From assembly GCF_002243515.1 (NCBI RefSeq), contig NZ_CP022657.1:1665001-1729000 (forward strand): a DNA stretch of 64,000 nucleotides, in the 5' to 3' direction. The stretch's first letter is position 1. The number at the start of each line of letters is the position of its first letter. Source of the DNA: Tumebacillus algifaecis. Its GTDB lineage: Bacteria; Bacillota; Bacilli; Tumebacillales; Tumebacillaceae. Both the position numbers and the translations under genes were made by a program. The notes below the pieces were generated by a model that saw only the letters and a list, made by a program, of their open reading frames with translations, was not told where the DNA came from and made no database searches. Shown here one piece after another: positions 1-16,675 of this stretch.

Positions 1-375
1 AAAGTCAAAGGCGCGCGACTCAGCCAAATATACCGTCGTCTTCATCCTGATAAACCTTCATACACAGTGACCGGAAGTGGTGGGGGTGGTACTCACGTGT
101 ACCATTGGGAGGAACCACGTGCACTGACTAATCGTGAACGAGCGCGCTTACAAACTTTCCCAGATCATTTTATCTTTGAGGGACAGAAAGAAAAAGTTCG
201 CCAGCAGGTTGGGATGGCTGTTCCGCCAGCTGGGGCGAAGATTATCTTTGAAGCGATCTTGAAGACGTTTGCTGAAGAACCGTATGAATCGCTAGAAGAG
301 TCTCAGTGGTGGAAGGGACTCAAAATCGATCTGAAAGAATTGAAAAACGATAAACAATTACAACTAACCCTTTAA
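1..375 (+). CDS. DNA (cytosine-5-)-methyltransferase, C-terminal part (5' end outside window)
   Basis: The frame is open from base 1 and ends with TAA, giving the last 124 residues. It shows the conserved end of a C5-cytosine methyltransferase: the segment YRRLHPDKPSYTVTGSGGGG resembles the region before motif IX, RALTNRERARLQTFPDHF is motif IX, and VGMAVPPAGAKII is motif X (usually GNAVPP, here GMAVPP). These motifs position the target-recognition region and rebuild the AdoMet pocket. The catalytic Pro-Cys motif lies upstream of the window and cannot be checked. The gene converges on an AlwI-type endonuclease, so it is a plausible cognate or companion methylase. The GTG at base 67 is an internal codon, not the start. 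Confidence 0.92.
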   Translation, partial: KVKGARLSQIYRRLHPDKPSYTVTGSGGGGTHVYHWEEPRALTNRERARLQTFPDHFIFEGQKEKVRQQVGMAVPPAGAKIIFEAILKTFAEEPYESLEESQWWKGLKIDLKELKNDKQLQLTL

Positions 376-388
376 TCTCTGTTATAGA

Positions 389-419
389 AAAACAGGAGGC
401 CGAATGAGCCTCCTGTTTT
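389..419. terminator. bidirectional hairpin terminator between methyltransferase and AlwI-like gene
   Basis: A perfect 12-bp stem, AAAACAGGAGGC paired with GCCTCCTGTTTT, has a 7-base loop and A/T runs on both flanks. It sits between two convergent genes and overlaps the stop codon of the minus-strand gene by two bases. Confidence 0.85.
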
Positions 420-2034
420 ATTTTGTCACAGCTCGTAGCAACTGCTCGATAGTCTTATAGCCGCTATTGTTCACTGCTTTCAAGAACAAATCTACTCTTT
501 TATCGGGTGAGAGCTCATGTTCTAAACAGTAATCAAGAAAACCAAGCAAAACAGACGCACTTAACATTACTCCCTTAATGATGCGTGTAGGGAAATGAGT
601 TGTAGCTTTTTGGCTTATCTTTATTAGATTTTTCTCACCGCTGAAATTACCAGCTGTCACGTATCCGAAAAATTGAATTTCGCGGCCATCGTAGCCCTCA
701 TAATTTGGAATATACTCGGAAACCATGTGCGAGACAAGTGTAGCGGATAATGGGAATTTGTCTGTTCGGTAGTTTTTCGCATCGATCAGACCGCACGCTA
801 GGTCTCCAAACTTCAACAGAATCTCGATCTCTGTTCGATCAGAGGTGTTAGGCTTAGGGCGCATTTCTAAATCAAAACCTATAGCTTTGAAGATCGCTCC
901 TGTTTGGTCTTCAAAAAGCAAGTTGTCATTCTGGTTGAGGTATTGCTCGACGAAATCATTATTCAATTGCGAGTATGAATATTGATGAATTTCACTCGCT
1001 AAATTCACTACATCACGTGAGGGAAACTCTTTTGACAACACACTTTTCAATTCGCTGATCGAGAGGGTAGAGGGCACAGGATACGACTGAAGCAGCTTCT
1101 CGACCTTTTGAGCCACCTTCCCACGATTTGTTGCAGGGCTCAATCCACCATAGCTTGTTGCTTTGTAGCTGTTTACATCAAGACCGTTGTTTTCAGCCAT
1201 CCGTTGTAATGAAATCATGTAGCGCTTGTTGAAAGGATATCGCTGGTCCCATTCATCAAGTTCTTCATTGAATTGTTTGCTCTTTGACGGATCTACACGT
1301 AGAGACTGGCCACGAATATATTCAACAAACTCGGTGTACTCGCACAGCAACATGAAGGTGTGTGCAACATCCGAATGTGCGTTTAGGAAATCGCGGGCCG
1401 CCCGATCAGAGCGTTCTCGATGGTCGTATTGTTCTGCGATTTCCTGGTGAATCCGGTCTTTTTCATTTTCCGAGGCTCTACGGAAATGTACAATCTTGTC
1501 TATCACTTTCGAAAGTTCATCATCCTTCTTCGCAGTCATCGCAAAATAGGTGATCTCTTCTTTGGTTAGGTAGTAGTCAAGTGCCGCTTGGTTGGTTAAA
1601 CGGGCGATGAAACGGGCAGGACGTATTTGGAATCCGTCGTCAAATTTAGGGCGGAACCCTTTTTCTAAAAAGTATGCGTTTGGAATTTGTAAAGTCAGAA
1701 TTTGTTTGCGAGTGTTCATGTAGACCGCTTTTTCTTCGAGAAGGGCTTGACCTACTTTGGTTGGAACCAAATACCCCTCGTCATTTGTGTAAATGTAGGC
1801 AAACGTTTTCAGCATTGCTGCCCAAGTCCTGCCGCCGGAGCCATCATTGCTTATGTGCTCGCGTTTGAGATTCTCATCAACGAGTGCCTGCTCATATGCC
1901 ACATGAGCGTGTCGGTTGGCCGACCACTTTATAGTAAAATTCTTGGTTGCTTTTTGTAGCGCAACGAGAGCTTCTTGATGAAATCTTGGGTCGCGCTCTG
2001 GGCGGGTAATGAACCAAACTTTACGTTCAGACAT
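418..2034 (-). CDS. AlwI-family type IIS restriction endonuclease
   Basis: This 538-aa protein matches the R.AlwI family as I know it. The N-terminus carries the block KVWFITRPERDP (res 5-16) and ISNDGSGGRTWAAMLKTF (61-78). The C-terminus has a FokI/AlwI-like PD-(D/E)XK cleavage core: GLIDAKNYR (415-423) supplies the D-x-K of the active site, an acidic residue upstream (E402/E404 or D411) is the likely partner, and FFGYVTAGNF (455-464) corresponds to the core strand after it. Family members bind a short asymmetric site (AlwI: GGATC) and cut a few bases away; the exact site here is not readable from sequence. The start overlaps the upstream 165-aa gene by 8 bp, indicating co-transcription, and the gene converges on the methyltransferase. 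Confidence 0.85.
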   Translation of the reverse strand: MSERKVWFITRPERDPRFHQEALVALQKATKNFTIKWSANRHAHVAYEQALVDENLKREHISNDGSGGRTWAAMLKTFAYIYTNDEGYLVPTKVGQALLEEKAVYMNTRKQILTLQIPNAYFLEKGFRPKFDDGFQIRPARFIARLTNQAALDYYLTKEEITYFAMTAKKDDELSKVIDKIVHFRRASENEKDRIHQEIAEQYDHRERSDRAARDFLNAHSDVAHTFMLLCEYTEFVEYIRGQSLRVDPSKSKQFNEELDEWDQRYPFNKRYMISLQRMAENNGLDVNSYKATSYGGLSPATNRGKVAQKVEKLLQSYPVPSTLSISELKSVLSKEFPSRDVVNLASEIHQYSYSQLNNDFVEQYLNQNDNLLFEDQTGAIFKAIGFDLEMRPKPNTSDRTEIEILLKFGDLACGLIDAKNYRTDKFPLSATLVSHMVSEYIPNYEGYDGREIQFFGYVTAGNFSGEKNLIKISQKATTHFPTRIIKGVMLSASVLLGFLDYCLEHELSPDKRVDLFLKAVNNSGYKTIEQLLRAVTK

Positions 2035-2524
2035 TGCGATCCTCCTCTGTTATATATCTCTTGATAAAAGCCTGATAGGCGAGTACTTCCTTAGAATCGG
2101 AGTAATACACTTGCTCTTTTAAAAACACATCAATGTAAACTTTCACACCTATAAAAAAGTCTCTTTCCCGTTCGGCAAGTTCCTGAAACTCAAAAATATT
2201 TAACTCTGAGGCGATGATTAAGGTCTTTGCGGTTTGGTGGTCTAGTAGTCTAATAAAATCCAAAGGCTTCTTGCCTTTCTCGACTAACACGTTATTAAGT
2301 GCACTCCAGTAACGCAAGAATGTAGTTATTTGGATGTCTTCTAGGTTCTTAAAGCTCTTGTTGAATGCACCGTCATTACGGCCAGCTGCTCGGCTTAATT
2401 CGACTTGTAGAATTTTATTTTCTTTTATTTCTTTTGTCCAATTATCAAAAAATCGCTTTAGTACAACCTTATGCAGCAACTTTTGTAAATCACTTTTGTT
2501 AATCTCAGGTGGGCAGACAGACAT
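2027..2524 (-). CDS. small HTH-like protein, possible controller (C-protein-like) of the restriction gene
   Basis: A 165-aa protein of no family I recognise with certainty. The central segment LSRAAGRNDGAFNKSF followed by LEDIQITTFLRYWSALNNVL has the helix-turn-helix rhythm of XRE/controller proteins. The ATG at 2524 is preferred to the GTG at 2533 because the AAGGG ribosome site is then about 10 bases away. It is the first gene of a two-gene operon with the AlwI-like nuclease (8-bp overlap). A perfect 22-bp palindrome lies about 57 bp upstream, as expected if the protein regulates its own promoter. Controller function is inference; the remaining 85 residues (alpha-helical, charged) are longer than in classical C proteins. 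Confidence 0.55.
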   Translation of the reverse strand: MSVCPPEINKSDLQKLLHKVVLKRFFDNWTKEIKENKILQVELSRAAGRNDGAFNKSFKNLEDIQITTFLRYWSALNNVLVEKGKKPLDFIRLLDHQTAKTLIIASELNIFEFQELAERERDFFIGVKVYIDVFLKEQVYYSDSKEVLAYQAFIKRYITEEDRNV

Positions 2525-2580
2525 CTTGTTCACACCCTTCGTATGTAATAATCATAGTGTAACCTTCAATATTGCATCGT

Positions 2581-2602
2581 ATATCACCTTATAAGGTGAT
2601 AT
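2581..2602. promoter_or_regulatory. perfect 22-bp palindromic operator upstream of the restriction operon
   Basis: The left arm ATATCACCTTA is followed directly by its exact reverse complement TAAGGTGATAT with no spacer. It lies 57 bp before the chosen start of the minus-strand HTH-like gene, in the promoter region. A C-box for autoregulation of the restriction operon is the natural reading. Confidence 0.6.
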
Positions 2603-2896
2603 TGATTGCGAAATTTGTAGTTATGATATTGGCACAAATTAACCAAGGGAAGTGTGTGTGATGAATGTGTGAACAACGGTTGTAAAATCTGAAATATAAA
2701 TGGTTGAATATTCCCCACTTCAAAAAGGACAGTCTCTTCGAGAGGTGAGAAATCATGGAACGGGGAATTTTTTTGTAAAAAACGGATGAAATATTGTAGA
2801 TGAGCATCACGGCTATTTCGAAAGGGTATGGCCGTGCTCGTAAGACTGTTCGCAGATGGTTACAGGAGGAATATTGGGTTACTGTATTTTGGCAAT
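2603..2896. other. gene-poor stretch with a possible transposase scrap
   Basis: No convincing full gene. A 32-codon frame at 2800-2898 (+) reads ITAISKGYGRARKTVRRWL, which looks like the helix-turn-helix of a transposase N-terminus, but it ends at once at a stop next to the IS21 remnant. I read it as another decayed fragment. Confidence 0.3.
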
Positions 2897-3302
2897 AAAA
2901 AAGCACTTGCCAACATCGATCTACAACTGTCCCTACGGTTTACGAAGACCATGGGGGAGCGAGAGGATGATGAAAGTGCCAAAACAACAGCGAAGGATGT
3001 TCGTTTACAGATATTGCAGAGGAATGAATGACAGTGAATTGGGGAACTGCCAAAAAGTATGAGGACAAGGGCGATTAGAACGAGTCGATGCTCGGGCGTC
3101 CCCCGGTATTATGGCCGTTTCTTGAAGTCATAGATACATTAATGAAAGAAGGAGCCCTTCCACTCAAGCAAAGTCATAGCGCTCGGCTCACCCCAACGAA
3201 ACAAAAAGTTAGGAGCGCTTGGAAAATACGGGCGGTGAAGCACAAGCCGACTTTGGCACCGTGCAGGTTGTTAAGAATAGGTAACTGGTGGAGTGCAAAA
3301 TC
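2897..3302 (+). mobile_element. istA: decayed IS21-family istA fragment (left copy)
   Basis: Broken reading frames still spell IstA. The start reads MMKVPKQQR (compare MLKVPERQ in the right copy at 10154), then VNWGTAKKYEDKGD, then in another frame GRPPVLWPFLEVIDTLMKEGALP, then GGEAQADFGTVQVVKN, which is the IstA segment with the first catalytic Asp of the DDE core. Several stops and frameshifts interrupt it. About 80 bases of upstream DNA are also shared with the right copy (both contain CACTTGCCAACATCGATCTA). It abuts the stop codon of the Z1 gene at 3303. No istB and no right end were found. Confidence 0.85.
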
Positions 3303-5333
3303 CTATGAGAGGTTCGTGATGAGAGCAAAGTTGCCGTCCGGGAAGCGGAACACCGGAATCCAAAAAGGATTTCCAGCCCAAGCAGCTGTTTTTTCTTGTC
3401 GGAGCATAAGTAAAGTTGGCAAGTCTGTATCGGCAGCTTGGAGATCCGCGCTTGTATAAACAGCTCTCAACTCATCTGGTCTACTCAGTTTACGCCCTCT
3501 CCGTACCAAAAGATACGCTTGTGTATACTCGTTTTTCAAGTGCTCTACTGCAAGTCTAATTCGCTCGTCGCTCCAAAGACCTTTAGATTCCTTATGTGTT
3601 TTTGTCCACTTAAGGAGTTGCTCAATGATATCAATAGAAACTTTATAGCCTTTGGTTTCTGTATACGATTGCAAAAGTTTATCGATTGATTCCGTGTTCG
3701 TTACAATCTCAGTGCCCTGATACTCTGGGCTGTGCGGAAAATAAGCCTTACCCGCTGCGAAAAAGCCCAATTCATTAGGGTCTAGCACGTTGGAACGAGT
3801 TGGTTTAATTGACGTATCCAGCCAAATACCTCGGAACCCTTTATCATCCTTGTGCTTCTGAATAATATCACGTAATTGTGTTTCAGACTCGTAGATTAGT
3901 TGGAATCGCTCAACTAAGTGGTCTGGCAAGAAAATTCTCGTAACATCCAAATCACGGGAGCGGTACCCGTACATCCTTGCATGTTGTAGTACGGTATCCA
4001 TCTGAGGCTTTTTTGCTTGCCTTCCATAGTAAGTGACCAACAAACGTTCGATCGTCACACCACGTCCTAGCTTCGTTCCGCCGATTAGGATATTATATCG
4101 CGCGTCATAGCGAGGTTGACCATTTGCACCATCTGTGTTGATGACTTGGATAGCTGTATTGTTGATGTACAGCACGAGTTTCTGCTCGATTTCTTCAAAG
4201 TCAGGTACTTTCTGGACGTGAGGCTTGAGGTTTTCGTAAGCTTGTTTCAAGTCTTTGATGATACGAATTTTTTTTGGTGAATCTTCCTTGGAACGCAGCT
4301 GAAGTGCCAACTCTTCTGTGTACTTTTGAATGATGATTCGAATATGGTCATGGTCGGCTTTCTTAAGGCTTACATGACATAGGAAGGAGAAATGACGGCC
4401 TTCCCGTTTAAGAATCTTAATCGTTGATCCGACATAGAACTGACAGATAGCAAGCTTTAATCCTTGAGGGATTGTTTTATTCACATTGCTTACTTTTCCA
4501 CTCAAACTGCTCAGTTCTTGCTCATCGACCCGTTGTAAGTAGTGACAATTCGCATTTTCTGAGAAAAAGTCCTCGCCGCCTACGTAGGCTTCTCCCGGTT
4601 CAGTCAGCACAGTAAACTCAGGACGATACGGTTTTTCCTGACCGAGCAAGAATAGCGATTGTGGTGTCGCGGTGACTTGAACAAATGTCCGTGATGAAAA
4701 AAGATCGCGCAACGCGCTTATCCGCCCATTTATACGGCTAACCTCGTCATCTTCCTTTGAGGCGTTCGTGTCTAGAGAAGCTTGATCTGCTTCATCATCG
4801 AAAATGATGGTGGGGTGTCTGAAGGCGCCAGTTTGTTGGATTACTTCAATCAAATTTTGGAGATGCACACCATTTTTTGTACATACAAAAAGCATGACGC
4901 CATCGGTGGCAAGGTTTTTTTTGATTGTGCCGACCGAGTTAGGGTCCCACTCTTCCTTCCCAGTGATCTTAATACCTGGCAACGACTTTCGGAGGCGACT
5001 AAGTGTTTGGTCATACAGCCACAAATTGTCAGATGTCAGCACAATGAAGCAACGGTAACTATTGTCAGCCGCCATGGCAATTGAGCCGATCAGCATGTTG
5101 GTTTTCCCGCTTTGAATCTTCCCGAAGATTAGACCACGTTTTTCACCTTTCTGCGTCGGTTCCTGTAAATTTTCCACGATTTCCACGGCGGTGTTCACGA
5201 TATTATTGACACCGCTACGTGGCACTTTTTCTTCCTGCAAGATTTCTTCTAACTCGAATATGTGATTCCCGTCGACCACTACTGTACGTTTATGAGTGGG
5301 TTTCACTATTCTGCTAACAAATTGGTTTTTCAT
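3303..5333 (-). CDS. Z1-domain superfamily II ATPase (restriction/defence system component)
   Basis: A 676-aa ATPase of the Z1 type. Visible motifs: Walker A GKIQSGKT (res 71-78), Walker B IIFDDEAD (176-183), motif III VTATPQSLFLL (220-230), motif V GGTKLGRGVTIERL (418-431), and motif VI DTVLQHARMYGYR (446-458). These mark a DEAD-like helicase/translocase fold; Z1 proteins are known from comparative genomics to travel with MORC-like ATPases and methyltransferases in restriction-type operons. It lies 21 bp downstream of the 172-aa gene on the same strand, so the two form an operon divergent from the MORC operon. The 3' end abuts the decayed IS21 fragment, but the C-terminus looks complete and ends in its own stop. 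Start ATG 5333; the ribosome site is weak. Confidence 0.88.
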   Translation of the reverse strand: MKNQFVSRIVKPTHKRTVVVDGNHIFELEEILQEEKVPRSGVNNIVNTAVEIVENLQEPTQKGEKRGLIFGKIQSGKTNMLIGSIAMAADNSYRCFIVLTSDNLWLYDQTLSRLRKSLPGIKITGKEEWDPNSVGTIKKNLATDGVMLFVCTKNGVHLQNLIEVIQQTGAFRHPTIIFDDEADQASLDTNASKEDDEVSRINGRISALRDLFSSRTFVQVTATPQSLFLLGQEKPYRPEFTVLTEPGEAYVGGEDFFSENANCHYLQRVDEQELSSLSGKVSNVNKTIPQGLKLAICQFYVGSTIKILKREGRHFSFLCHVSLKKADHDHIRIIIQKYTEELALQLRSKEDSPKKIRIIKDLKQAYENLKPHVQKVPDFEEIEQKLVLYINNTAIQVINTDGANGQPRYDARYNILIGGTKLGRGVTIERLLVTYYGRQAKKPQMDTVLQHARMYGYRSRDLDVTRIFLPDHLVERFQLIYESETQLRDIIQKHKDDKGFRGIWLDTSIKPTRSNVLDPNELGFFAAGKAYFPHSPEYQGTEIVTNTESIDKLLQSYTETKGYKVSIDIIEQLLKWTKTHKESKGLWSDERIRLAVEHLKNEYTQAYLLVRRGRKLSRPDELRAVYTSADLQAADTDLPTLLMLRQEKTAAWAGNPFWIPVFRFPDGNFALITNLS

Positions 5334-5354
5334 GTTCTTATCCCCAGACTATAA

Positions 5355-5873
5355 TTAAAGTGTAAACAGTTTACGCGGGAAATCATTGTGACGAATGGAC
5401 GTAGACATCTCACCAGCTGGTCCGGCTACCCAAAGACTCCGGTTATGCCCGGAATTCACTGATATCCACTTATCTCCCAAAACTTCGAAATCGATAATCT
5501 TCTTCAGTTCTTCGGCGCCTAGTACACAAATCGTGTGGTTGGCACACACCAATCCAAGAAAAAAATCTTTCCCTCGTACCAGTTCAGCGCGAATTGCATC
5601 CTCCTCGCGTTCGGAAAGTTGGAAGCGCCATGGCGCTCGAGCATTCGTTCTGTATTTTAGCATCAATACAGACTTTTGATTAATAACGTATACGCTGTTT
5701 TGATCTGGCCGCTTGTATATGTGAACGGCCTCGCCGTGTTCAACAATTTGCGCGAGGGCCGCGCCATAAAATAGCTCTTGTTCCTGAATTTTCAATGGGT
5801 CCACACCTTTTTGATAATGATATACACCAAGCGAGTAAAATAGCTGATCCAACAATTCGAGGAAATGATTCAT
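5355..5873 (-). CDS. 172-aa protein of unknown function, partner of Z1
   Basis: I do not recognise a family. The protein is mixed alpha/beta: an N-terminal helical part (res 1-45), then SVYVINQKSVLMLKYRTN (60-77), PWRFQLSEREEDAI, DFFLGLVCANHTICVLG, and a C-terminal NDFPRKLF. The order of strand-LKY-helix and strand-LVC could fit a restriction-endonuclease-like fold with a degenerate D/E-x-K, but no acidic pair is clearly in place, so a non-catalytic or adaptor role is equally likely. It is first in the minus-strand operon with Z1 (21-bp gap) and shares a divergent promoter region with the MORC gene. Start ATG 5873 has only a weak AGG upstream. Confidence 0.7.
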   Translation of the reverse strand: MNHFLELLDQLFYSLGVYHYQKGVDPLKIQEQELFYGAALAQIVEHGEAVHIYKRPDQNSVYVINQKSVLMLKYRTNARAPWRFQLSEREEDAIRAELVRGKDFFLGLVCANHTICVLGAEELKKIIDFEVLGDKWISVNSGHNRSLWVAGPAGEMSTSIRHNDFPRKLFTL

Positions 5874-6334
5874 AAGTTAGCCTAATATCATTGTCGAAGT
5901 ACATGTATGACACCAAATTCGGATGCAACACCTTGTCATTGACAGGTCTTCCAAAACCTCTGGTAACTTTTGAGTGGCATTAATTTCATGAGTTTTCTAT
6001 TTATCTGATTGTTAACCCCTAACAAGAGTGCAATATAACATGATGTTTTCTTGAGTGGGCTATCTAGTGAATATAAACAATTAACCTTTTTATTTAATGG
6101 GAATATCTATGAAGTTATTCTATTGCATCTTAACACCAATCTCCCATGTGATTCAATAACTCTTTCAGTAAAAATAGTATTTAGGGTTGGTTTTTCTAAA
6201 AAAGTAGTTGATAAAAGGAAATTGCAAGATTATGTTGAATTACCTAATTGAAAATTAGATACAGTGAAATTGATTATTTTCGATTTATAAATTTCTGTAT
6301 ATCAAATTCAACTTACGTCAGAAAGGGGAACAAT
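5874..6334. promoter_or_regulatory. AT-rich divergent promoter region of the Z1/MORC module
   Basis: 461 bp separate the divergent 172-aa/Z1 and MORC operons. The stretch is strongly AT-rich and should hold both promoters. A 66-codon frame (6051-6251, +) starts with TTG, lacks a ribosome site and has an AT-driven composition, so I do not call it a gene. No long palindrome was seen. Confidence 0.45.
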
Positions 6335-8242
6335 ATGTACGGTTGGAAATTCCCTCTGCTTAATCACGGGCAAATAATTGGACTCAACGACTCCGGTGTG
6401 GAGACGTTCCGAAATGATTTGATCGATTCCCTTGCTCGAGAAATTATACAGAATTCGTGTGACGCTCGGGATGAACAAGCTGAGCATCCCGTTGAAGTAC
6501 ATTTTGAGCTGTTATCCTTACCGACTGAAAAACTCCCAGGTCGAGATAGACTTATCCAAGTCTTCCAATCGGCTCGACTGGTTTGGGCTCATCTCCCAGA
6601 TTCCTGCAAGTTTTTTGATCATGCTTTGGATTTGATCCAACGACCTGAGATTCCAATGTTGAAGATCAGTGACTACCAAACAACAGGTTTAACTGGGGCG
6701 CGGGAGGAGATTTTCGGCAGCTGGAATGCATTGGTAAAATCGTCAGGCGTATCCGATAAACCATCTCAAGCAGGTGGGTCCTTTGGGATCGGGAAGAATG
6801 CTCCCTTTGCTTGTACTCGTTTTCGGACGATCTATTATGGAACAAAAGACACGGACGGCGTCACCGCTTTCCAAGGTGTGGCCAAACTGGTCTCTCATGA
6901 AGAAGAAGGGGAACTCACTCAAGGTACTGGTTTTTTTGGTCGGAGTGAACGAAATCTACCTTTACTTGAAGAGATCCATTTTGCTGAAGCAGGAGTGGAT
7001 CCCTTGTTTACCCGAACGCAAACCGGAACGGATATATTTATACCTGGATTTCAAATAGAATTGGGTTGGGAAGTTCGCATCATCCGATCGGTGCTTGAGC
7101 ATTTCTTTGTTTCCATTAAGGAAGGCCGTCTTGTTGTCTGTGTAGGGTCCACTAAGATCGATACTCAGAATCTGGAAATGCTACTCCATCAACATGTGGA
7201 TGAAGAAAATTCAATGCTCGTATCCAGCTACTATCAAGCGTACAAGACACCCGTATTAGCGACTGGATTCGAAGAACCCGGGGACGTGGAACTGTACTTG
7301 TTGTCCGGTAAGGAACTACCCAAACGCATAGCTATGTTCCGTTCGACAGGCATGAAAATTCAAGATAAACGCTTCAACGCCATTATGCCGTTTTCTGGCG
7401 TATTTATAGCTAAAGGAAAAGGACTGAATGAGTTCCTCCGTAAGTTGGAACCCCCGAACCACCAAAGCTGGGAGTGGAGTCGGTTCAGTCTAGATACTAA
7501 GGAACAAAACCAAGCCAAGAAGCGTCTTGAACGAATGTATAATTGGATCAAAAATCATCTTCGCCAAATGGAAGCCCAGGAGGAAACCCAAACGCTTGAG
7601 GTCGAAGGCATGAGCCAATTTCTCCCAGATAATCATGATGAATCATTTCTGACTGAACGACAAGGGGACGGGATGCGCACCGTACCGACCGATATCTCTG
7701 TCCGTACTGTTCGACGCCAAGCTCATGGGGTGCAAATCGCCAAAGAAGAAGTTTCAGCGGCACAAGAAGATCTCATCGAGGACAAAGAACAGTCTAAAGA
7801 TAACGGTCAAGAGATTGAAGTAACCGGAGGGACCGGGCCAAGCGGTGAGCAAGATGATTCAGATGAAAAAGGTGGTAATGACGGACAGGACGGGTCAAAC
7901 CAAGGGTCAGGTGAGACATCGGGACGCAAAGTGCGGAAGATCAAGTCTCTGAAAAAAGTAGTCGTATTTTGCGTGAACCCAATGGAAGGTATCTACCAAT
8001 TGATCGTCATGCCAGATGTAGACGGCGTGGCATCACTTAGTATCTCGGTGGTGGGTGAAGACAGTAAGGGACATGTACCGGTGCTTGAGGCGAAAATTAA
8101 AGAGACAGGCGATGCTATTGCGGTGGCTCCAAAAGGAAAAATTGGTCCGTTCTGGATGAAGTCCAATCAGAACAATACGCTGCTGATCCGAATGAACAAC
8201 TCAACTCGTTATCGCCTTGAGGTGACCTTACATGCAAATTAA
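6335..8242 (+). CDS. MORC-like GHKL ATPase of a Z1-type defence module
   Basis: A 635-aa protein with an N-terminal Bergerat ATP-binding fold. Seen: N box REIIQNSCDA with E36, N40 and D43; G1 box ISDYQTTGL around D113; G2 box GGSFGIGKNAP (148-158); and a later GTGFFG. The QNSxDA box and the Asn/Asp spacing match the MORC/MutL class rather than histidine kinases. After the ATPase and a transducer-like region (to about 420) comes a charged helix, an acidic Gly/Ser/Asp-rich linker (about 470-530) and a beta-rich tail of about 100 residues. The ATG at 6335 follows GAAAGGGG at good spacing and begins MYGWKFPLLN; the longer frame from 6248 has no ribosome site. The next gene overlaps by 11 bp. MORC-like ATPases clamp or compact DNA; in phage defence this role is inferred. 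Confidence 0.87.
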   Translation: MYGWKFPLLNHGQIIGLNDSGVETFRNDLIDSLAREIIQNSCDARDEQAEHPVEVHFELLSLPTEKLPGRDRLIQVFQSARLVWAHLPDSCKFFDHALDLIQRPEIPMLKISDYQTTGLTGAREEIFGSWNALVKSSGVSDKPSQAGGSFGIGKNAPFACTRFRTIYYGTKDTDGVTAFQGVAKLVSHEEEGELTQGTGFFGRSERNLPLLEEIHFAEAGVDPLFTRTQTGTDIFIPGFQIELGWEVRIIRSVLEHFFVSIKEGRLVVCVGSTKIDTQNLEMLLHQHVDEENSMLVSSYYQAYKTPVLATGFEEPGDVELYLLSGKELPKRIAMFRSTGMKIQDKRFNAIMPFSGVFIAKGKGLNEFLRKLEPPNHQSWEWSRFSLDTKEQNQAKKRLERMYNWIKNHLRQMEAQEETQTLEVEGMSQFLPDNHDESFLTERQGDGMRTVPTDISVRTVRRQAHGVQIAKEEVSAAQEDLIEDKEQSKDNGQEIEVTGGTGPSGEQDDSDEKGGNDGQDGSNQGSGETSGRKVRKIKSLKKVVVFCVNPMEGIYQLIVMPDVDGVASLSISVVGEDSKGHVPVLEAKIKETGDAIAVAPKGKIGPFWMKSNQNNTLLIRMNNSTRYRLEVTLHAN

Positions 8243-9089
8243 AGGAAGCCATTATCCGCATCCGGTTTTGTCCGATTTTTCAGAGGCACTGGTCGATTCG
8301 TTGTTTGATGCATCGTTTGATACTCAAGTGGACGGCAATATGTATCGGCTTCGGGTGGACTTCACTCTTGTCAATGAAGATCTGAATACCCTCATTCAAA
8401 AAGGAAAAGCAACTTATGCACTCCATCTTGAATGTATAGGCACCCGGTTACGTTCTCTTTACAGATCCCGAGAGGATAACTTGGTTGTGGAAGTGCCGGC
8501 TCAGGAACTTGATGGAAGAGTTGAAGTATGTGTGTTCATATTGGCGTCAGAGGACTTGGAATACACGAACCGGAATTTCGGTGAAGATTATAATGGTGTT
8601 ACATTTTTCGTTCAAAAGGGTGACGTGTTGGCGGTCGGACCTGAATTTCGCTTCGTCCCGCCCAAAGACATTGATCCATTGCTTAAAGTACCGTCTATTT
8701 TTGCGGTACAAATGAACCCTCATTCTGATGCGCCAGATCTTGACGTCTCTTTGGCAACACCTAAAGTAGTAATTCTTCTCTCGCGCAAATTATTTACTGA
8801 TTACCAAACACTGGCAAACGTCGAAGAGATGAAATCTGTACTAGCGACGTTGATTGTGTTACCTGCACTCACATATGTGTTGGAAGAGATGAACAACGAT
8901 GACATGATCGATGAATATGAGCTACAACGTTGGTACCAAGTTTTACAAGATAGATTACGCGAACTGAATCTGAAAGGGTCCGGCCATTCAAACCTTTGGG
9001 TCGCACAACAACTGATCGGTGCTCCACTGAGCAATGCGTTGACCGATACAAAAAAACTTGTCATGGCATCTGGAGGTGGCAATGAGTAA
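8232..9089 (+). CDS. 285-aa protein of unknown function in the MORC operon
   Basis: Unrecognised family. Residues 1-150 are rich in beta strands: RLRVDFTLVNEDL, YALHLECIGTRLRSLYRS, DGRVEVCVFILASEDLEY, YNGVTFFVQKGDVLAVG. Residues 180-285 are helical (LATLIVLPALTYVLEEMN, ELQRWYQVLQDRLRELN). There is no transmembrane segment and no obvious nuclease motif. The start overlaps the MORC stop by 11 bp after GAGGTGACC, and the stop overlaps the DUF6339 start in TAATG, so the three proteins are translated in tight coupling and likely act together. A structural adaptor between the MORC ATPase and DNA or a nuclease is a guess only. Confidence 0.72.
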   Translation: MQIKGSHYPHPVLSDFSEALVDSLFDASFDTQVDGNMYRLRVDFTLVNEDLNTLIQKGKATYALHLECIGTRLRSLYRSREDNLVVEVPAQELDGRVEVCVFILASEDLEYTNRNFGEDYNGVTFFVQKGDVLAVGPEFRFVPPKDIDPLLKVPSIFAVQMNPHSDAPDLDVSLATPKVVILLSRKLFTDYQTLANVEEMKSVLATLIVLPALTYVLEEMNNDDMIDEYELQRWYQVLQDRLRELNLKGSGHSNLWVAQQLIGAPLSNALTDTKKLVMASGGGNE

Positions 9090-9886
9090 TGACCATACAT
9101 TATCTGCGAGAAGCCCATTTGTCGCTACTGAAAACGGGGATTGAAGCAAACTTCCCCCGGTATCAAGCCCAGAGTCCTTGGCTTGATGACCTATTTGGTG
9201 GTGAGAGTTACAGCTTGCCATCAAACTTTTTGATGCCCGAGGTAAAGTTGCAATTGGGGAAAGAGGCGCACAACGATCTGCACAATTCGAAAATTGTCCA
9301 CCAAGCGTTTCGAAACCTCACGTTGACAGAGGCATCTAATGAGCAACTTTGGGCATATCTGGCGCATGTGACTTTTTGGGAGTATATGATTTCACGGTGG
9401 CCGGCCGTGGCTCATGATGAGCAAGGATTTGACGATGATTCGGATGATGACGAAGAGAGCAAGACAAATCGCAAAAAAGATCCCTTTACTGTCGTTCGAA
9501 ACCGCTACTTTTTCAACGGGGGTAGATCACTGGTTCGTCACGGCATTGCGAGGCTCTGGTGGTATGGTTTCGCAACGTATGATCCAAATCGAGGCAACCC
9601 GTATGAATTAACAGAGGTACTTTTGAAAAATCAGGATTTGGCCCAAAATTTAATGGAACGATCGTTCTCGCGAAATATAATGATCCTGCGAACCATTCTG
9701 TCATTGCTACATAAGGAAGGTCAGTCTGATGACCGTTGGTTCCAACGGAAGTACTATCGTGAAGTAATAAAGCATATCAATCACACTGGTGGTGTAACGG
9801 TTTTAGATGCATTGGATGTTCCAGATATTGAGACGGTTGTGAAGAATGGGATGGAGAGTGTGGCACTAAGTTTTACTGAAGGCTAA
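9089..9886 (+). CDS. DUF6339-family protein
   Basis: A 265-aa, mostly helical protein resembling the DUF6339 family, whose members occur beside Z1 and MORC-like ATPase genes. Recognisable blocks: AHNDLHNSKIVHQAF (res 55-69), EQLWAYLAHVTFWEYMISRWP, RYFFNGG, ARLWWYGFATYD, and ERSFSRNIMILRTILSLL. A very acidic stretch (DDDSDDDEES) lies near residue 120. Translation is coupled to the preceding gene (TAATG). No catalytic motif is visible; the biochemical role is unknown. It is the last gene of the plus-strand operon, followed directly by a terminator. Confidence 0.75.
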   Translation: MTIHYLREAHLSLLKTGIEANFPRYQAQSPWLDDLFGGESYSLPSNFLMPEVKLQLGKEAHNDLHNSKIVHQAFRNLTLTEASNEQLWAYLAHVTFWEYMISRWPAVAHDEQGFDDDSDDDEESKTNRKKDPFTVVRNRYFFNGGRSLVRHGIARLWWYGFATYDPNRGNPYELTEVLLKNQDLAQNLMERSFSRNIMILRTILSLLHKEGQSDDRWFQRKYYREVIKHINHTGGVTVLDALDVPDIETVVKNGMESVALSFTEG

Positions 9887-9902
9887 CTATGAACTCGCAA
9901 TG

Positions 9903-9939
9903 AAAAGCGTGCTATGGGATATCTCATAACACGCTTTTT
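9903..9939 (+). terminator. terminator of the MORC operon
   Basis: Stem AAAAGCGTGCTATG with CATAACACGCTTTTT (one bulge), 8-base loop, ending in a T run, 16 bases after the DUF6339 stop. Confidence 0.8.
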
Positions 9940-10034
9940 CGTGGTCAGGGCCGATTCTTCATCTGGAAGAGGATGAGACCTAGAACCTTTCTTATAACTT
10001 CAGGGTCTATTTATCACATAATAGAAATGCGGAA

Positions 10035-10356
10035 TGTCGCGGCGTAAAAGTGCAGACTTTGCACGCGACATTCTGGTATTAAAAAGGCACTTGCCAACAT
10101 CGATCTACTAACTTACCCTACGGTTTGCGACGACCAAGGGAGGATCGAGAGGATGTTGAAAGTGCCTGAGCGACAGTATATCAAATTTTTGCGCGAACAC
10201 GAAGGGGGTACGATAACCGAAATTGCATAACGAATGAACGTAAATTGGCGAACTGCCAAAAAATTTGCGGAAATAGACGATTGGAATGAAACGGTGGGAA
10301 AACGATTCGGTCGTTACCCAGCTTAGGTCCGTTTCTCGAAATCATAGATACGTGGT
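10035..10356 (+). mobile_element. istA: decayed IS21-family left end and istA fragment (right copy)
   Basis: It begins with a terminal-repeat-like segment: TGTCGCG (10035) and its inverse CGCGACA (10064-10070). Then follows DNA nearly identical to the left copy (CACTTGCCAACATCGATCTA), and an istA start at 10154 reading MLKVPERQYIKFLREHEGG, TITEIA, stop, RMNVNWRTAKKFAEIDDW, and after a frameshift GPFLEIIDTW. Two stops and a frameshift make it dead. It has the same orientation as the copy at 2897-3302, so the Z1/MORC module lies between two direct IS21 remnants. Confidence 0.85.
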
Positions 10357-10500
10357 GATGAGATTTATCGTTTTTCTAGCGGTACGGTTCGTTTGGTGAA
10401 CAAAGCGGCGACGTATAGTTTGATCAAAGGCGCAGCGAACAAGTACCGGATCATTGACGACCATATGATAAAACGGGTGATCGCGGGAGAAATGACTTAA
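10357..10500 (+). pseudogene. C-terminal fragment of an ExeA-like transposition AAA ATPase
   Basis: A 47-codon open frame without a start reads DEIYRFSSGTVRLVNK, AATYSLIKGAANKYR, IIDDHMIKRVIAGEMT and a TAA stop. This is the lid/C-terminal end typical of ExeA/TniB-like AAA ATPases that accompany DDE transposases. It is fused directly behind the broken istA fragment, indicating a deletion that joined two different transposon remains. Confidence 0.65.
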
Positions 10501-10783
10501 TTCTCCCACTTTTCCTTTCAGGGGTGGCACCGCTCACGCGGTCATCATTTCCGTCAACTCTTGGACAGCAAAGCCTATCAGTTTACGGACATAATAGGGC
10601 AATAGTAACCGAAAATTCCTTTTCCGTAATAACACATTAAGCCAATCGTGTAATTTTATGAATTGCACATACATCCAGAGAGGTTTATCCTCAATAAATG
10701 TGGAACTATTTTATATACGTATGCTTCAAGTACAGTTTTTTGGTGATATTGTTTGATTATTTTACTCAGAGAGGAGTCGTACT
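10501..10783. other. non-coding stretch after transposon remnants
   Basis: No gene found. The first 60 bases probably belong to the end of the decayed element; the rest is AT-rich and leads to the GAGAGGAG ribosome site of the HNH gene. No terminal repeat was identified. Confidence 0.35.
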
Positions 10784-11515
10784 ATGGTGGTTGAGAACAA
10801 ATCAAAACGAAATCCACCGTGGCAAAGGGACGAGGTAATACTTGCATTGGATTTGTATTTTCGCAGACATCCCAAATTTTTAAAACAGAGTGACCCTTTA
10901 GTGGTTGAATTGAGCCAATTACTTAATAATCTACCCATCCATAAAGAACGATCAGCAACGTTTCGTAATCCTTCCTCAGTATTGAAAAAGCTATGGAACT
11001 TTGCACAGTATGACCCAACTTATCATGGAGTGGGTCTTATGCGAGGAGCGAGGATGGACAAAACAATTTGGGATGAGTTTGCGGGAGATCTTGAGTATTT
11101 ACAATGTGTGGCACAGCGAATCAAAGAAGGGGCTGATTTAGAGCTATCTTCGGATGCGGGGGATGATGAAGAGACAGAGTTTCCAGAGGGAAGAGTGTTG
11201 TATCGATTACATAAATCTCGCGAACGGAATGGCAGACTAATAGAGCTAGCCAAAAAGAGGGCGAAAGATGAAGGGCGTCTATTTTGTGCAATTTGTGAAT
11301 TTGACTTTGCGAAGGCTTATGGCCCGCTAGGTGAGGGGTATATCGAGTGCCATCATACTGTTCCAGTTTCTAAATACGATGAGAATTCAAAAACCAGACT
11401 TGAAGATTTAGCTTTGGTATGTTCGAATTGTCATCGAATGTTGCATCGAAAACGTCCGTGGCTAAATCTTACTGATCTAAAGGGAATATATCTTAGGGAT
11501 GAGCGATTGAGATAG
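10784..11515 (+). CDS. HNH endonuclease, McrA-like (type IV restriction candidate)
   Basis: A 243-aa protein with a C-terminal HNH nuclease. C168-x2-C171 and C213-x2-C216 form a structural zinc site, and ECHHTVPVS (189-197) with LVCSNCHRMLH (211-221) gives the beta-beta-alpha-metal active site. The N-terminal half (NPPWQRDEVILALDLYF, FRNPSSVLKKLWNFA, GARMDKTIWDEFA) is the domain commonly seen in HNH proteins annotated as modified-base restriction enzymes. Such enzymes cut DNA carrying foreign methylation; the specificity here is unknown. Start ATG 10784 follows GAGAGGAG. It stands alone but next to the Z1/MORC and AlwI modules. Coexistence with a resident C5 methyltransferase implies it does not attack that mark. 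Confidence 0.82.
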   Translation: MVVENKSKRNPPWQRDEVILALDLYFRRHPKFLKQSDPLVVELSQLLNNLPIHKERSATFRNPSSVLKKLWNFAQYDPTYHGVGLMRGARMDKTIWDEFAGDLEYLQCVAQRIKEGADLELSSDAGDDEETEFPEGRVLYRLHKSRERNGRLIELAKKRAKDEGRLFCAICEFDFAKAYGPLGEGYIECHHTVPVSKYDENSKTRLEDLALVCSNCHRMLHRKRPWLNLTDLKGIYLRDERLR

Positions 11516-11941
11516 GAATAAGTGTTAGAGTAGGGTCTCAATTTGAGGGTGTGTCAAAAATTATGAGCAACTCCAAAATGCGAGCGTTTCTTGTGATAGC
11601 GATCAATTCGGTCAGAATAATGCCTCGCGGACAAAAGGATAGTTTATCCATAATTCTAATTTCGTGATGGTCTACTTGCGACCACGTCCATTACATTTCA
11701 GCAAAGCATCTTGAAAAGTGATTTATCACTCGAAAAGATGCTTTTTCCTTTCACCCCAATTAATTGCATCTTTAATGGGGTCCCTGTTTCGAATGATTTG
11801 GAAAATAAATATTAGATAAATGCAATGCTGTTGATGTACCGCAATGCGCGGCTCCTAAGAAATAAAAATATATACACAATATAAACTTTGAAAAAACAAA
11901 TCAGTATGTTATCTTAGGTATATTGCAGAGGAGGTTTGTAG
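11516..11941. other. intergenic region with terminator and promoter of the RNPP-like regulator
   Basis: 426 bp with no gene seen. The first part is low-complexity; a hairpin at 11704-11745 follows; the last 120 bases are very AT-rich and should contain the promoter of the regulator, whose ribosome site is AGAGGAGG at about 11929. Confidence 0.4.
11704..11745 (+). terminator. hairpin terminator downstream of the HNH gene
   Basis: Outer stem AAGCATCTT / AAGATGCTT, inner palindrome AGTGAT-TT-ATCACT, then a T run. It lies about 190 bases after the HNH stop. Confidence 0.65.
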
Positions 11942-13258
11942 ATGGGAAGTACGGTAGAGACATTAGGAGAAAAAATCAGGAGACTTCGTTTGGAAAGAGG
12001 AATGAGTCAAGCTGAGATTGCAGATGGCTTTGTAACGGTATCGATGATCAGTCAGATCGAACGAGATCGAAATACAGCATCTATAGAACTGTTACAGCAT
12101 ATTGCCAAAAAGCTTCAAATTCCTTTACACGTGCTTGTAAGAAGCGAAGTGGAGCAAATGGAAGCGATAAATCAACAAAAGCTCGTGAAAATTTATTTGC
12201 AAACTAATCAATCAGAACAAGCTGAACTACTTTTGGTTGAACTGCGAAGAAGGAATGATTTATCGCAAGCTGACATCATTGATCTAACAATCGATCACGC
12301 AGAGTGTATGATTCAACAGGGCAAATATGATCAATCTTTAGAATTTCTAACACCATTAGTTACTCAGATGGAGAATAACAATTTTGATGATGCCTATATC
12401 TTGGCGAAAATTCGAAACAAAATGGGGAACGCATACTATCACAAGCTTGAGTTTACTCCCGCCTATTATAATTATCAGAAGGCTTACGATCTCATTGGAC
12501 GATTCGGCACTTTCGATCAACTTGCGGCATATATTTCATACAATGTTGGTAATACCTTGCGTCAAATGGGTCATGGACAAAAAGCACTACTATTTTTAGA
12601 AAGGGCATATTCGTATTTTCGTAATGTAATGGATATTCGTAAGCAGGCTGACACGCTTTTCACTCAAGGCCGAGCTTTTTACAACTCATATGATTTAAAA
12701 CGATCGGCTGAATCCTATGAAGAGGCCTATGTGTTATACAAGGGCTTAAACTTGGTGGCTTGGGCAGTAAAGGTACAGCATAGCGTTGCGGTATTACTGA
12801 AAATGAATGAGGACATGCATGGAGCAATATCAGCTCTAGAAGAGTGTGCAGAATTTTATCTAAATGATGCGGACTATTTAAATTATATCTTGGTGCTGGC
12901 AAAACTTGCAGAAGTTCAAATGGAAAATGATCCGAAAATTGCCCTCGAGAAAATCGTTGCCGCAGAAAGGCTAATTGAGGAACATTGCTTGCAAAATAAG
13001 GTCGAGAGCGCTGTGCTATTTCGAGTAAAATCAAAGTATCATTTGCGTAATGAGGAATTTGGAAAGTGTCTAGAAGAAGTGTTAAAGTCAGCAGATTTAT
13101 TTGCTAAAATGGGACTAGTTGCCTCTCAAGTTGACTCTTTGGAAGTTGCCGTTGATGCATATGAAAAGCTGGGTAATTTTGAGCAAGCGTTGAAACTTGA
13201 GCGTGAACGGAACCGACTCTTAAAAAAATTGAATCCGAAAGGTGAACTGATTGGATGA
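11942..13258 (+). CDS. HTH-TPR transcription regulator, RNPP/NprR-like
   Basis: A 438-aa cytosolic regulator. Residues 8-65 form an XRE HTH (LGEKIRRLRLERGMSQ, then VSMISQIERDRNTASIELL, then IAKKLQIPL). Residues 75-430 consist of tetratricopeptide repeats (GNAYYHKLEFTPAYYNYQKA, GNTLRQMGHGQKALLFLERA, ALEECAEFYL and others). This architecture and length are those of NprR/PlcR-type regulators that bind re-imported signalling peptides in the TPR domain. The stop codon overlaps (ATGA) the start of a 42-codon secreted-peptide gene, the classical layout of an RNPP receptor and its pheromone. Start ATG 11942 follows AGAGGAGG. Target genes are unknown; base composition is AT-rich like the defence island. 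Confidence 0.85.
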   Translation: MGSTVETLGEKIRRLRLERGMSQAEIADGFVTVSMISQIERDRNTASIELLQHIAKKLQIPLHVLVRSEVEQMEAINQQKLVKIYLQTNQSEQAELLLVELRRRNDLSQADIIDLTIDHAECMIQQGKYDQSLEFLTPLVTQMENNNFDDAYILAKIRNKMGNAYYHKLEFTPAYYNYQKAYDLIGRFGTFDQLAAYISYNVGNTLRQMGHGQKALLFLERAYSYFRNVMDIRKQADTLFTQGRAFYNSYDLKRSAESYEEAYVLYKGLNLVAWAVKVQHSVAVLLKMNEDMHGAISALEECAEFYLNDADYLNYILVLAKLAEVQMENDPKIALEKIVAAERLIEEHCLQNKVESAVLFRVKSKYHLRNEEFGKCLEEVLKSADLFAKMGLVASQVDSLEVAVDAYEKLGNFEQALKLERERNRLLKKLNPKGELIG

Positions 13259-13383
13259 AAAAGTTACTTTTAACGGTACTCCTCGTATCAGGTTTTTTGT
13301 GTTTCTCTGGCGATCATGTAACCGTTCATGCTGCGTCCGAAACACCTGGACCGGGTCCCTTGGGTGTGTCGATTTTGAAATAG
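13255..13383 (+). CDS. putative secreted signalling propeptide (Phr/NprX/PapR-like)
   Basis: A 42-aa frame starting in the ATGA overlap with the regulator. Residues 1-25 form a typical signal peptide (MKKLLLTVLLVSGFLCF core), with a VHAA signal-peptidase-like site; the remaining SETPGPGPLGVSILK would be exported. RNPP pheromones are made this way, cut to 5-10 residues and re-imported by an Opp permease. The active peptide is probably part of the last 8-10 residues, which is inference. The stop lies inside the following hairpin, so the pair is one transcription unit. Confidence 0.7.
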   Translation: MKKLLLTVLLVSGFLCFSGDHVTVHAASETPGPGPLGVSILK

Positions 13384-13420
13384 AAAGAGTTGTGAAGACT
13401 TCCACGACTCTTTCTATTTC
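13377..13420 (+). terminator. long hairpin after the peptide gene
   Basis: Stem GAAATAGAAAGAGT with ACTCTTTCTATTTC, extended by a G-T pair and GTG/CAC, 7-base loop. No strong T run follows, so termination may be weak. It overlaps the last codons of the peptide gene. Confidence 0.6.
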
Positions 13421-13477
13421 ATCCGCTACCTTAATGAAATATTTAGTAAAAACAACCAACTGGAGTGTTGTTTTATC

Positions 13478-13990
13478 ATGAAACGCAAATTCTGGCTGTT
13501 TCTTTCTTTGCTGTTGCTTCCATGGTTTGTGAATGGGTGTGAAATATCCAAAGAGGATGTGCCGCAACAACAAAAACAGGTGACCGGGCCTGTCGTTCCC
13601 TTAGCTGAAGAAGGGCGAAAGTTTGCCATCGACGAAAAGTTAATGTCCGATGTCGAGGAAACGCAAATTGTATATACGCGCTTTCAGAAATATGGACCAC
13701 AATACCTAATGGTACGTGGGGTGGACACAGACGGCAGGGAAAAAATCATCTGGTTAAGTGGCAACACCTCTACGGGAATTCGAGTGGTCAGTGAAACTTA
13801 TATAGAAACCTTCCTAACCGAGTCGCGGATACGTGAAATGGTTAAGGATCAGGGGGAGATCGTCGATTTGTTCCTTGCTCCGAACGATCGTGTGGAAGGC
13901 AAGGGCAAGAATCAGCCGATTTGGTACGTAGAGTTTGGGAATGGACACGTGACTTATCTGAACCCTGAAACGGGCGAACAGTTGAAATAA
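13478..13990 (+). CDS. predicted lipoprotein of unknown function
   Basis: A 170-aa protein with a lipoprotein signal: KRK, a hydrophobic stretch LFLSLLLLPWF and a lipobox VNGC (Cys21). After a Gln-rich linker the C-terminal part includes GPQYLMVRGVDTDGREKIIWLSG and WYVEFGNGHVTYLNPETGEQL, which resembles the PepSY-like/DUF5590 type of extracytoplasmic domain. It should be anchored on the outer face of the membrane. It is a single gene with its own terminator; the promoter must lie in the 60 bases after the peptide-gene hairpin. Confidence 0.7.
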   Translation: MKRKFWLFLSLLLLPWFVNGCEISKEDVPQQQKQVTGPVVPLAEEGRKFAIDEKLMSDVEETQIVYTRFQKYGPQYLMVRGVDTDGREKIIWLSGNTSTGIRVVSETYIETFLTESRIREMVKDQGEIVDLFLAPNDRVEGKGKNQPIWYVEFGNGHVTYLNPETGEQLK

Positions 13991-14032
13991 GGAAAAAGCT
14001 CTCGTCGAATGTTCGCCGAAAGCTTTTTCCTT
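13989..14032 (+). terminator. terminator of the lipoprotein gene
   Basis: Stem AAGGAAAAAGCT / AGCTTTTTCCTT with a 20-base loop that itself contains complementary CG-rich halves; it starts at the stop codon. Confidence 0.75.
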
Positions 14033-14173
14033 ATCTCACCTAGTAGCAAGTGGAGTAAAGGGACTTTGTTGTAATCGTCGCCTTTGCTGAAAGAGAGGAT
14101 ACCCTTCACAGAACCGATCTCGCCTTTTCAGTAACCATTCATACACCGATAGGAAAATCGACACAAACATAAT

Positions 14174-14212
14174 AAAGAGCCCCGATCACCACATTGATGA
14201 TCGGGGCTCTTT
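14174..14212. terminator. strong hairpin in the gap before the GTPase gene
   Basis: Perfect 15-bp stem AAAGAGCCCCGATCA / TGATCGGGGCTCTTT with a 9-base loop. It lies 65 bp beyond the end of the minus-strand GTPase gene and probably terminates it. The remaining gap 14033-14277 shows no gene. Confidence 0.75.
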
Positions 14213-14277
14213 AGCACGTATCTGATTCTGAGCAGATCAAGGTCTCGAACAATAGTAAGCATAATAATTTCTTTCAA

Positions 14278-15264: not shown

Positions 15265-15279
15265 GGTTATGCTCCTTTA

Positions 15280-15300
15280 CAACAGGAATGATTACGATTT
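15280..15300. promoter_or_regulatory. Zur-box-like operator
   Basis: The right half ATTACGATTT is an exact match to the Bacillus Zur half-site; the left half (CAACAGGAAT) matches 6 of 10 positions of AAATCGTAAT, with one centre base, giving 16 of 20. It lies between the promoter and start of the minus-strand COG0523 gene. Confidence 0.65.
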
Positions 15301-15423
15301 GAGTCTTGTTATCTCTTATTCTATAGGAGAGTGATGCAAAGGGCAATTTTCATCTGGCATATTGTAGGGGAGGGGGGCGTAGAATGTACTAGATTACTAG
15401 AGTGGTTGAAAGGAGAACGCTGC

Positions 15424-15783: not shown

Positions 15784-15820
15784 GGTGGGTTTTTTTGTAA
15801 TCATACTTTCGAAAACACGT

Positions 15821-15826
15821 TATAAT
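15821..15826 (+). promoter_or_regulatory. probable -10 box for the micro-ORF/236-aa unit
   Basis: TATAAT lies 43 bp before the ATG of the micro-ORF at 15870. No clear -35 at 17-bp spacing was found (TTGTAA is 20 bp away). Confidence 0.4.
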
Positions 15827-15869
15827 AGTTCTAGCAATCTATCAGTATTGTAAAAGAAAGGGTATGCGC

Positions 15870-16660: not shown

Positions 16661-16675
16661 GAGATCGAGCAATTG

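What the first reader, a model, noticed from the sequence alone, without database searches (positions are those of the whole stretch)
3303..9886. Divergent five-gene Z1 / MORC-ATPase module: candidate anti-phage system
Seen: two operons face away from each other. Minus: 172-aa unknown then Z1 ATPase. Plus: MORC-type GHKL ATPase (start 6335), 285-aa unknown, DUF6339, with overlaps of 11 bp and TAATG. Known: prokaryotic MORC-like ATPases with Z1 and methyltransferases were described by comparative genomics (Iyer, Abhiman and Aravind). Inferred: a DNA-sensing clamp (MORC) works with a Z1 translocase. The usual separate PD-(D/E)XK or AIPR partners I would expect were not found inside the module, so the nuclease must be supplied by the AlwI-like enzyme next door or by one of the two unknowns. 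That would be a new variant.
Basis: partly seen in the sequence, partly recalled or inferred. Interest (0 to 1): 0.9.

Follow-up and report, generated by a model that had tools for sequence, protein, structure and literature searches.

The report
Restriction-linked ATPase trio beside Z1 pair
The five genes are not one machine: they are two separate, mobile gene cassettes, a three-gene putative ATPase unit already listed as an untested phage-defence candidate and a two-gene Z1 ATPase pair, sitting side by side in an acquired island of restriction genes.

Summary
The plus operon (6335-9886) matches PADLOC's untested candidate PDC-M33A/B/C end to end. Its ATPase carries the paraMORC2 hallmark (ExxxH) of Iyer et al. 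2008. A-B-C is contiguous in 74/74 loci with full-length copies, but its neighbours vary: C5 methyltransferases within 7 kb in 27/45 loci with long flanks, and restriction enzymes of many nuclease classes. A Thermosipho contig (another phylum) carries the methyltransferase, BpuJI/AlwI-like enzyme, 168-aa gene and trio, without Z1. The minus pair (172 aa + Z1) is a separate cassette: the closest Z1 relatives found, on Nostoc and Calothrix plasmids, have the same small gene just upstream and no trio within 10 kb. Its Z1 is related to CglI/NgoAVII-type ATPases, and a PLD-B3 nuclease of that type lies just outside the window. The models of M33B (Ig-like plus helical) and DUF6339 (all-helical) do not look like nucleases. 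Best reading: the trio is an ATP-driven DNA-clamp accessory working with whichever restriction nuclease is next door; this is inferred. The GHKL assignment rests on motifs and literature only. Largely a known kind; the Z1/172-aa cassette and partner swapping are the new parts.

The parts
1..375 (+). 3' part of a 371-aa C5-cytosine DNA methyltransferase (starts about 740 bases upstream of the window, L003:4260-5375)
   Evidence: PF00145 E 2.4e-69 over the full protein; 69% identical to the methyltransferase beside the trio in Thermosipho L030, 60% to that of a PLD-R/Z1/Vsr/M locus
418..2034 (-). BpuJI/AlwI/N.BspD6I-like type II restriction endonuclease
   Evidence: PADLOC REase_II PDLC03504 E 1e-247; PF11564 and PF09491; N.BspD6I structures E ~1e-7; 56% identical homologue in L030
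2027..2533 (-). 168-aa protein of unknown function, overlaps the restriction endonuclease start
   Evidence: no Pfam/PADLOC/NCBIfam match; homologue (40% over 100 aa) at the same place in Thermosipho L030
3303..5333 (-). DEAD-Z1-C ATPase, relative of N/H subunits of CglI/NgoAVII restriction systems
   Evidence: PF10593 E 1.6e-44; PADLOC Helicase_II E 1e-106; C-terminal region matches 6f1s (deposited as CglIIR protein), 2.4e-4 alone and 1.2e-9 as profile; 29.5% identical over 38-665 to the Z1 protein of the gonococcal M-R-N locus; Walker A, DDEAD and DTVLQHARMYG motifs intact
5355..5873 (-). 172-aa partner of the Z1 gene, unknown function
   Evidence: homologues directly upstream of the closest Z1 relatives on Calothrix and Nostoc plasmids; phrog_28860 E 1e-26; 41% paralogue elsewhere in the same genome without Z1
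6335..8242 (+). paraMORC2-type (putative GHKL) ATPase = PDC-M33A
   Evidence: PADLOC PDC-M33A E 4e-198 end to end; N-box E36..QNSxD43, G1 D113..G118, G2 GGSFGIGK, GT 231-232 and ExxxH (E372-H376) invariant or nearly so in 55-86 homologues; no Pfam HATPase hit
8232..9089 (+). PDC-M33B, Ig/FnIII-like beta domain plus C-terminal helical part
   Evidence: PADLOC PDC-M33B E 1.6e-84; AlphaFold2 pLDDT 91, pTM 0.61; fold searches
9089..9886 (+). PDC-M33C / DUF6339, all-helical protein
   Evidence: PF19866 E 6e-54; PADLOC PDC-M33C E 4e-75; AlphaFold2 pLDDT 92, pTM 0.88, no PDB match at E<1
10784..11515 (+). HNH endonuclease, probable separate island gene
   Evidence: PF01844 E 1.8e-8; homologues in only 2 other trio loci

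Best explanation
The locus is an acquired restriction/defence island in a chromosomal hotspot. It contains two independent cassettes that face away from each other. (a) The A-B-C trio (paraMORC2-type ATPase, M33B, DUF6339) is a nuclease-free accessory to restriction-modification. The ATPase probably dimerises on ATP and clamps or loops DNA, with B and C as scaffold or adaptor subunits, and a neighbouring restriction nuclease does the cutting: here the BpuJI/AlwI-like enzyme, possibly the PLD-B3 enzyme. The C5 methyltransferase marks self DNA. (b) The 172-aa/Z1 pair is a CglI-N-like DNA-dependent ATPase with its own small partner, which may or may not join in. Shown: anatomy, conservation of the trio, swapping of partners, the separate occurrence of the Z1 pair, signs of horizontal acquisition. 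Inferred: the GHKL fold (motifs only), ATP-clamping, physical coupling to the nuclease, anti-phage activity.
For: A-B-C order contiguous and same strand in 74/74 loci, distances co-vary (Spearman 0.72-0.81, permutation max 0.22). C5 methyltransferase within 7 kb in 27/45 loci with long flanks, against about 0.7% expected from 9 PF00145 genes in about 24 Mb of eight trio genomes. Partners span nuclease classes: PLD-B3, BpuJI/AlwI-like, EcoRII-C, MutH-like, GmrSD, PLD-ResIII helicase, McrC-like, HsdR-like, Vsr. Thermosipho L030 keeps methyltransferase (69%), BpuJI-like RE (56%), 168-aa gene (40%) and trio (39-43%) without Z1. Predicted B and C folds do not resemble nucleases. Z1 tree and plasmid loci show the U172-Z1 pair on its own. 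Low-GC island, trio absent from 20 relatives, different content at the same flanks in two sister species. paraMORC2 motif and RM context described by Iyer et al. (PMC2292703). DNA entrapment and compaction by eukaryotic MORCs (abstracts of PMC8277788 and PMC12216690).
Against: 18 of 45 loci with long flanks show no C5 methyltransferase within 7 kb, so some trios may act alone or with distant partners. GHKL homology was not recovered by Pfam or profile-profile comparison. The Z1 branch near or in operon with the trio (L037, L068, L098) is the weakly supported (76) sister of this Z1, which leaves room for a real link. No experiment on any PDC-M33 member was found.
Confidence: 0.5

Rival explanations
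1. The trio is a self-sufficient defence system: A-B-C alone senses and sequesters or compacts phage or plasmid DNA, or stops growth, and merely travels in islands rich in restriction genes.
For: 18 of 45 loci with long flanks have no C5 methyltransferase within 7 kb; partners are too varied for one fixed enzyme; PADLOC defines a three-gene candidate; M33A relatives occur on mobilizable and conjugative plasmids.
Against: C5 methyltransferase enrichment is far above background and often immediately adjacent; the same methyltransferase, BpuJI-like enzyme and 168-aa gene stay with the trio across phyla; no effector domain is recognisable in A, B or C.
Confidence: 0.25
2. One reading: all five genes are one anti-phage machine in which a MORC clamp works with a Z1 translocase.
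For: Z1 lies in 10 of 86 trio loci, directly upstream on the same strand in L037 and L068 and 0.5 kb away in L098; this Z1 groups, at support 76, with that branch.
Against: The five genes recur together nowhere found; the 172-aa/Z1 pair occurs without the trio on two Nostocales plasmids; the RM-linked trio relative in Thermosipho has no Z1; 76 of 86 trio loci show no Z1 in the held sequence.
Confidence: 0.1
3. Z1 is the N subunit of a CglI/NgoAVII-type system split apart in this island, working with the PLD-B3 R protein and the C5 methyltransferase about 3-5 kb away; the trio is an unrelated neighbour of that system.
For: All three CglI-type genes (M, R, N) are present; C-terminal domain matches 6f1s; M is 57-60% identical to M genes of PLD-R/Z1 loci L115 and L139; HxK and GSxN motifs of R intact.
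Against: The CglI-type N clade (support 100) excludes this Z1, which pairs with U172-linked Z1 (96); in classical loci M-R-N are adjacent in one operon and here they are not; the R protein is very divergent.
Confidence: 0.15

Closest known systems
PADLOC candidate PDC-M33 (A/B/C)
   Same: All three genes match their models end to end, in the same order
   Different: Nothing in the trio; in this island it is next to two restriction endonucleases and a 172-aa/Z1 pair. No published test of PDC-M33 was found
paraMORC2 family of Iyer, Abhiman and Aravind 2008 (PMC2292703)
   Same: GHKL-like motifs in order, invariant ExxxH in the C-terminal part of the predicted ATPase module, Gram-positive distribution, restriction-modification context
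   Different: The passages read describe no fixed B and DUF6339 partners; full A-B-C linkage is shown here by counts
CglI / NgoAVII restriction systems (M, R, N)
   Same: Z1 protein with DEAD-Z1-C architecture; a PLD-B3 R protein and C5 methyltransferase in the same island
   Different: Genes are dispersed on both strands; this Z1 lies outside the CglI-type N clade and has a 172-aa partner instead
MZA-like MORC-Z1-DUF4420 operons
   Same: Combination of a MORC-like ATPase with a Z1 ATPase and C5 methyltransferases
   Different: Here no DUF4420/PD-(D/E)XK or AIPR gene, and the ATPase and Z1 belong to different branches; an MZA-like operon occupies the same hotspot in a sister species

Membership tests
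PADLOC PDC-M33 | Full-length matches to M33A, M33B and M33C in adjacent genes | tested here: met
   E 4e-198, 1.6e-84 and 4e-75, end to end, contiguous operon
[quoted passage not shown]
   E372-H376 invariant in 55-86 homologues; compared with the paper's description, not with its sequences
paraMORC2 | GHKL ATPase fold | tested here: inconclusive
   N, G1, G2, G3 boxes present in order but no Pfam HATPase, PDB or profile-profile support; no structure prediction run for this protein
MORC proper | MORC-specific GhXhhpXXRhl motif in the S5 domain | not tested
   Not searched for by pattern; profile comparison with canonical MORC-like proteins of Z1 operons was not significant
CglI/NgoAVII-type restriction system | DEAD-Z1-C ATPase subunit (N/H) | tested here: met
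   Z1 plus C-terminal domain match
CglI/NgoAVII-type restriction system | PLD + B3 endonuclease and C5 methyltransferase present | tested here: met
   RE_NgoFVII, RE_NgoFVII_C and PF00145
CglI/NgoAVII-type restriction system | N protein falls in the clade of N proteins from M-R-N operons, genes in one operon | tested here: not met
   Placed in a sister clade with U172-Z1 pairs; M, R and Z1 dispersed on both strands
MZA-like system | Canonical MORC (HATPase_c_3), Z1, DUF4420 nuclease and AIPR in one operon | tested here: not met
   No such genes in the window region; MORC-Z1 operons of that kind are seen in sister genome G399 and in loci L022 and L117
Anti-phage defence system | Protection against phage or plasmid | not testable with these tools
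   Needs plating assays

The most novel reading that the evidence does not exclude
A nuclease-agnostic, ATP-driven DNA-clamp module (paraMORC2 + M33B + DUF6339) that plugs into many unrelated restriction nucleases, plus an apparently undescribed two-gene Z1/172-aa cassette shared between Bacillota and cyanobacterial plasmids, which together form a composite restriction machine in this island.
Probability: 0.2. Interest if true: 0.75.

Novelty: new member of a known kind. Interest (0 to 1): 0.42.

Why it matters
Bacterial MORC-like ATPases have been predicted restriction partners since 2008, but no functional test of this branch was found. Showing that one fixed three-gene unit is reused beside PLD, BpuJI-type, EcoRII-like and MutH-like nucleases makes a clear prediction: the trio acts on DNA, not on one particular enzyme. 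The Thermosipho and clostridial loci with few partner genes give compact test systems. It would also bear on how MORC proteins, which entrap and compact DNA in eukaryotes, began.

Tried and rejected
172-aa gene as a lone phage-type stray: rejected once the Nostoc and Calothrix plasmids showed it directly upstream of Z1, although stand-alone copies also exist. Z1 as a plain CglI N subunit: weakened by the tree. M33B or DUF6339 as hidden nucleases: no sequence match; M33B's best fold matches are Ig/FnIII-like (Z up to 8.7), and the C-terminal helical part of M33B was barely tested by that list; DUF6339 gave no PDB match below E 1. GHKL confirmation of the ATPase by Pfam, PDB profile and hhalign failed. 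Phage records hold almost no M33A relative (one) and no U172. No Rfam RNA in 1-20000; promoter-like sites not above shuffled background. Literature searches for PDC-M33, DUF6339 and paraMORC gave no functional study; only openly licensed papers are held.
Full report
What is there. The five ORFs exist as described. Z1 (3303-5333, minus) lies 21 bp downstream of the 172-aa gene (5355-5873, minus). On the plus strand 6335-8242, 8232-9089 and 9089-9886 overlap by 11 bp and by the TAATG junction. The window is part of a 4.52-Mb single-contig genome. In between and beside lie the BpuJI/AlwI-like type II endonuclease (418-2034), a 168-aa gene (2027-2533) and an HNH gene (10784-11515).

The plus operon. 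All three proteins match PADLOC PDC-M33A, B and C end to end. [quoted passage not shown] The ATPase has GHKL-style boxes in order (ExxQNSxD at 36-43, D113...G118, GGSFGIGK at 147-154, GT at 231-232) and an invariant ExxxH at 372-376. Iyer et al. used ExxxH to mark their paraMORC2 family, described as common in Gram-positive bacteria and cyanobacteria and linked to restriction systems (PMC2292703). I could not recover GHKL homology with Pfam, PDB profiles or hhalign, so this assignment is motif- and literature-based. M33B and DUF6339 were modelled with 71-sequence alignments: M33B pLDDT 91, an Ig/FnIII-like beta domain and a helical C-terminal part; DUF6339 pLDDT 92, almost all-helical, no PDB match below E 1. 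Neither resembles a nuclease in these searches.

Conservation of the trio. A scan of GTDB contigs found at least 445 relatives; the best 80 were studied with 10-kb flanks where available, together with genomes from a phylum sample in which 9 of 398 carry an M33A match. Of 74 loci with three full-length genes all 74 have A-B-C contiguous on one strand, and their distances co-vary. By their record titles the loci include Bacillota, a Thermosipho, betaproteobacteria, a planctomycete and spirochaetes. The 80 are best hits, not a balanced sample, and contain near relatives such as several Paenibacillus; counts should be read with that in mind.

Partners of the trio. A C5 methyltransferase lies within 7 kb in 27 of 45 loci with long flanks, against roughly 0.7% expected from the gene density in eight trio genomes. 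Nuclease neighbours vary: PLD-B3, BpuJI/AlwI-like, EcoRII-C, MutH-like, GmrSD, PLD-ResIII helicases, McrC-like, HsdR-like, Vsr. The most telling locus is Thermosipho L030: methyltransferase 69%, BpuJI-like enzyme 56%, 168-aa gene 40%, trio 39-43% identical, same strand arrangement, no Z1 and no 172-aa gene. L016/L027 has methyltransferase (57%) and PLD-B3 enzyme directly before the trio, and four loci have the two fused (L058, L064, L072, L096). The BpuJI-like enzyme is rare: 1 of 378 sampled genomes, the own one.

The minus pair. In trio loci the 172-aa gene occurs only here and Z1 in 10 of 86. The closest Z1 relatives found in the plasmid collection are on Calothrix AP018212 and Nostoc NZ_CP040285 (35% identity over 94-99%), each with a 172-aa homologue directly upstream and no trio, PLD-R or C5 methyltransferase hit within 10 kb. 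A tree places the window Z1 with these two (96), next to the Z1 genes near or in operon with the trio in L037, L068 and L098 (76), and this group beside the CglI/NgoAVII-type N proteins (100). The C-terminal region matches 6f1s, deposited as CglIIR protein. CglI is proposed to move along DNA by ATP hydrolysis as an R2H2 complex before cleavage (PMC5737866 abstract; PMC4267653). Whether this Z1 uses the divergent PLD-B3 protein nearby is open.

Setting. The stretch is 39-46% GC against 53-56% in the first 2 kb upstream and 51% at the downstream end. The trio is absent from 20 relatives including two of the same genus. Those two keep the flanking genes; one has a PLD-helicase there and the other an MZA-like operon (MORC-like ATPase, Z1 in two pieces around transposon-like genes, a 340-aa gene and C5 methyltransferases). 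This is a defence hotspot, which also gives a simple reason why unrelated cassettes end up side by side.

Verdict. Trio: member of PDC-M33, most likely a restriction-linked DNA-clamp accessory (0.5). Z1 pair: a variant of CglI-type ATPases with its own partner. Mechanism is inferred throughout; no activity has been shown.

Noticed in passing
L043, L050, L055, L058, L064, L069, L072, L073, L074, L075, L082, L096, next to the trio: A roughly 1000-aa protein follows the trio directly in 11 of 12 mostly clostridial loci; the one scanned (L074) has RNA polymerase alpha-CTD-like and sigma70 region 4-like matches and no PADLOC match.
   Followed up: partly
G399 (L133, L134), same hotspot in a sister species: An MZA-like MORC-Z1 operon whose Z1 gene is split in two around transposon-like genes.
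   Followed up: partly
G398 (L132:4559-7750): A PLD-ResIII-DUF3427 helicase protein occupies the same hotspot in another sister species.
   Followed up: no
L140, L141 (viral contigs): Homologues of the 172-aa protein on IMG/VR contigs, with no Z1 gene found in the stretch held.
   Followed up: partly
L105:9268-9714 (own genome, about 108 kb): A 41% identical paralogue of the 172-aa gene away from any Z1 gene.
   Followed up: partly
L058, L064, L072, L096: C5 methyltransferase and PLD-B3 endonuclease fused in one 680-697-aa protein, on the strand opposite to the trio and close to it.
   Followed up: no
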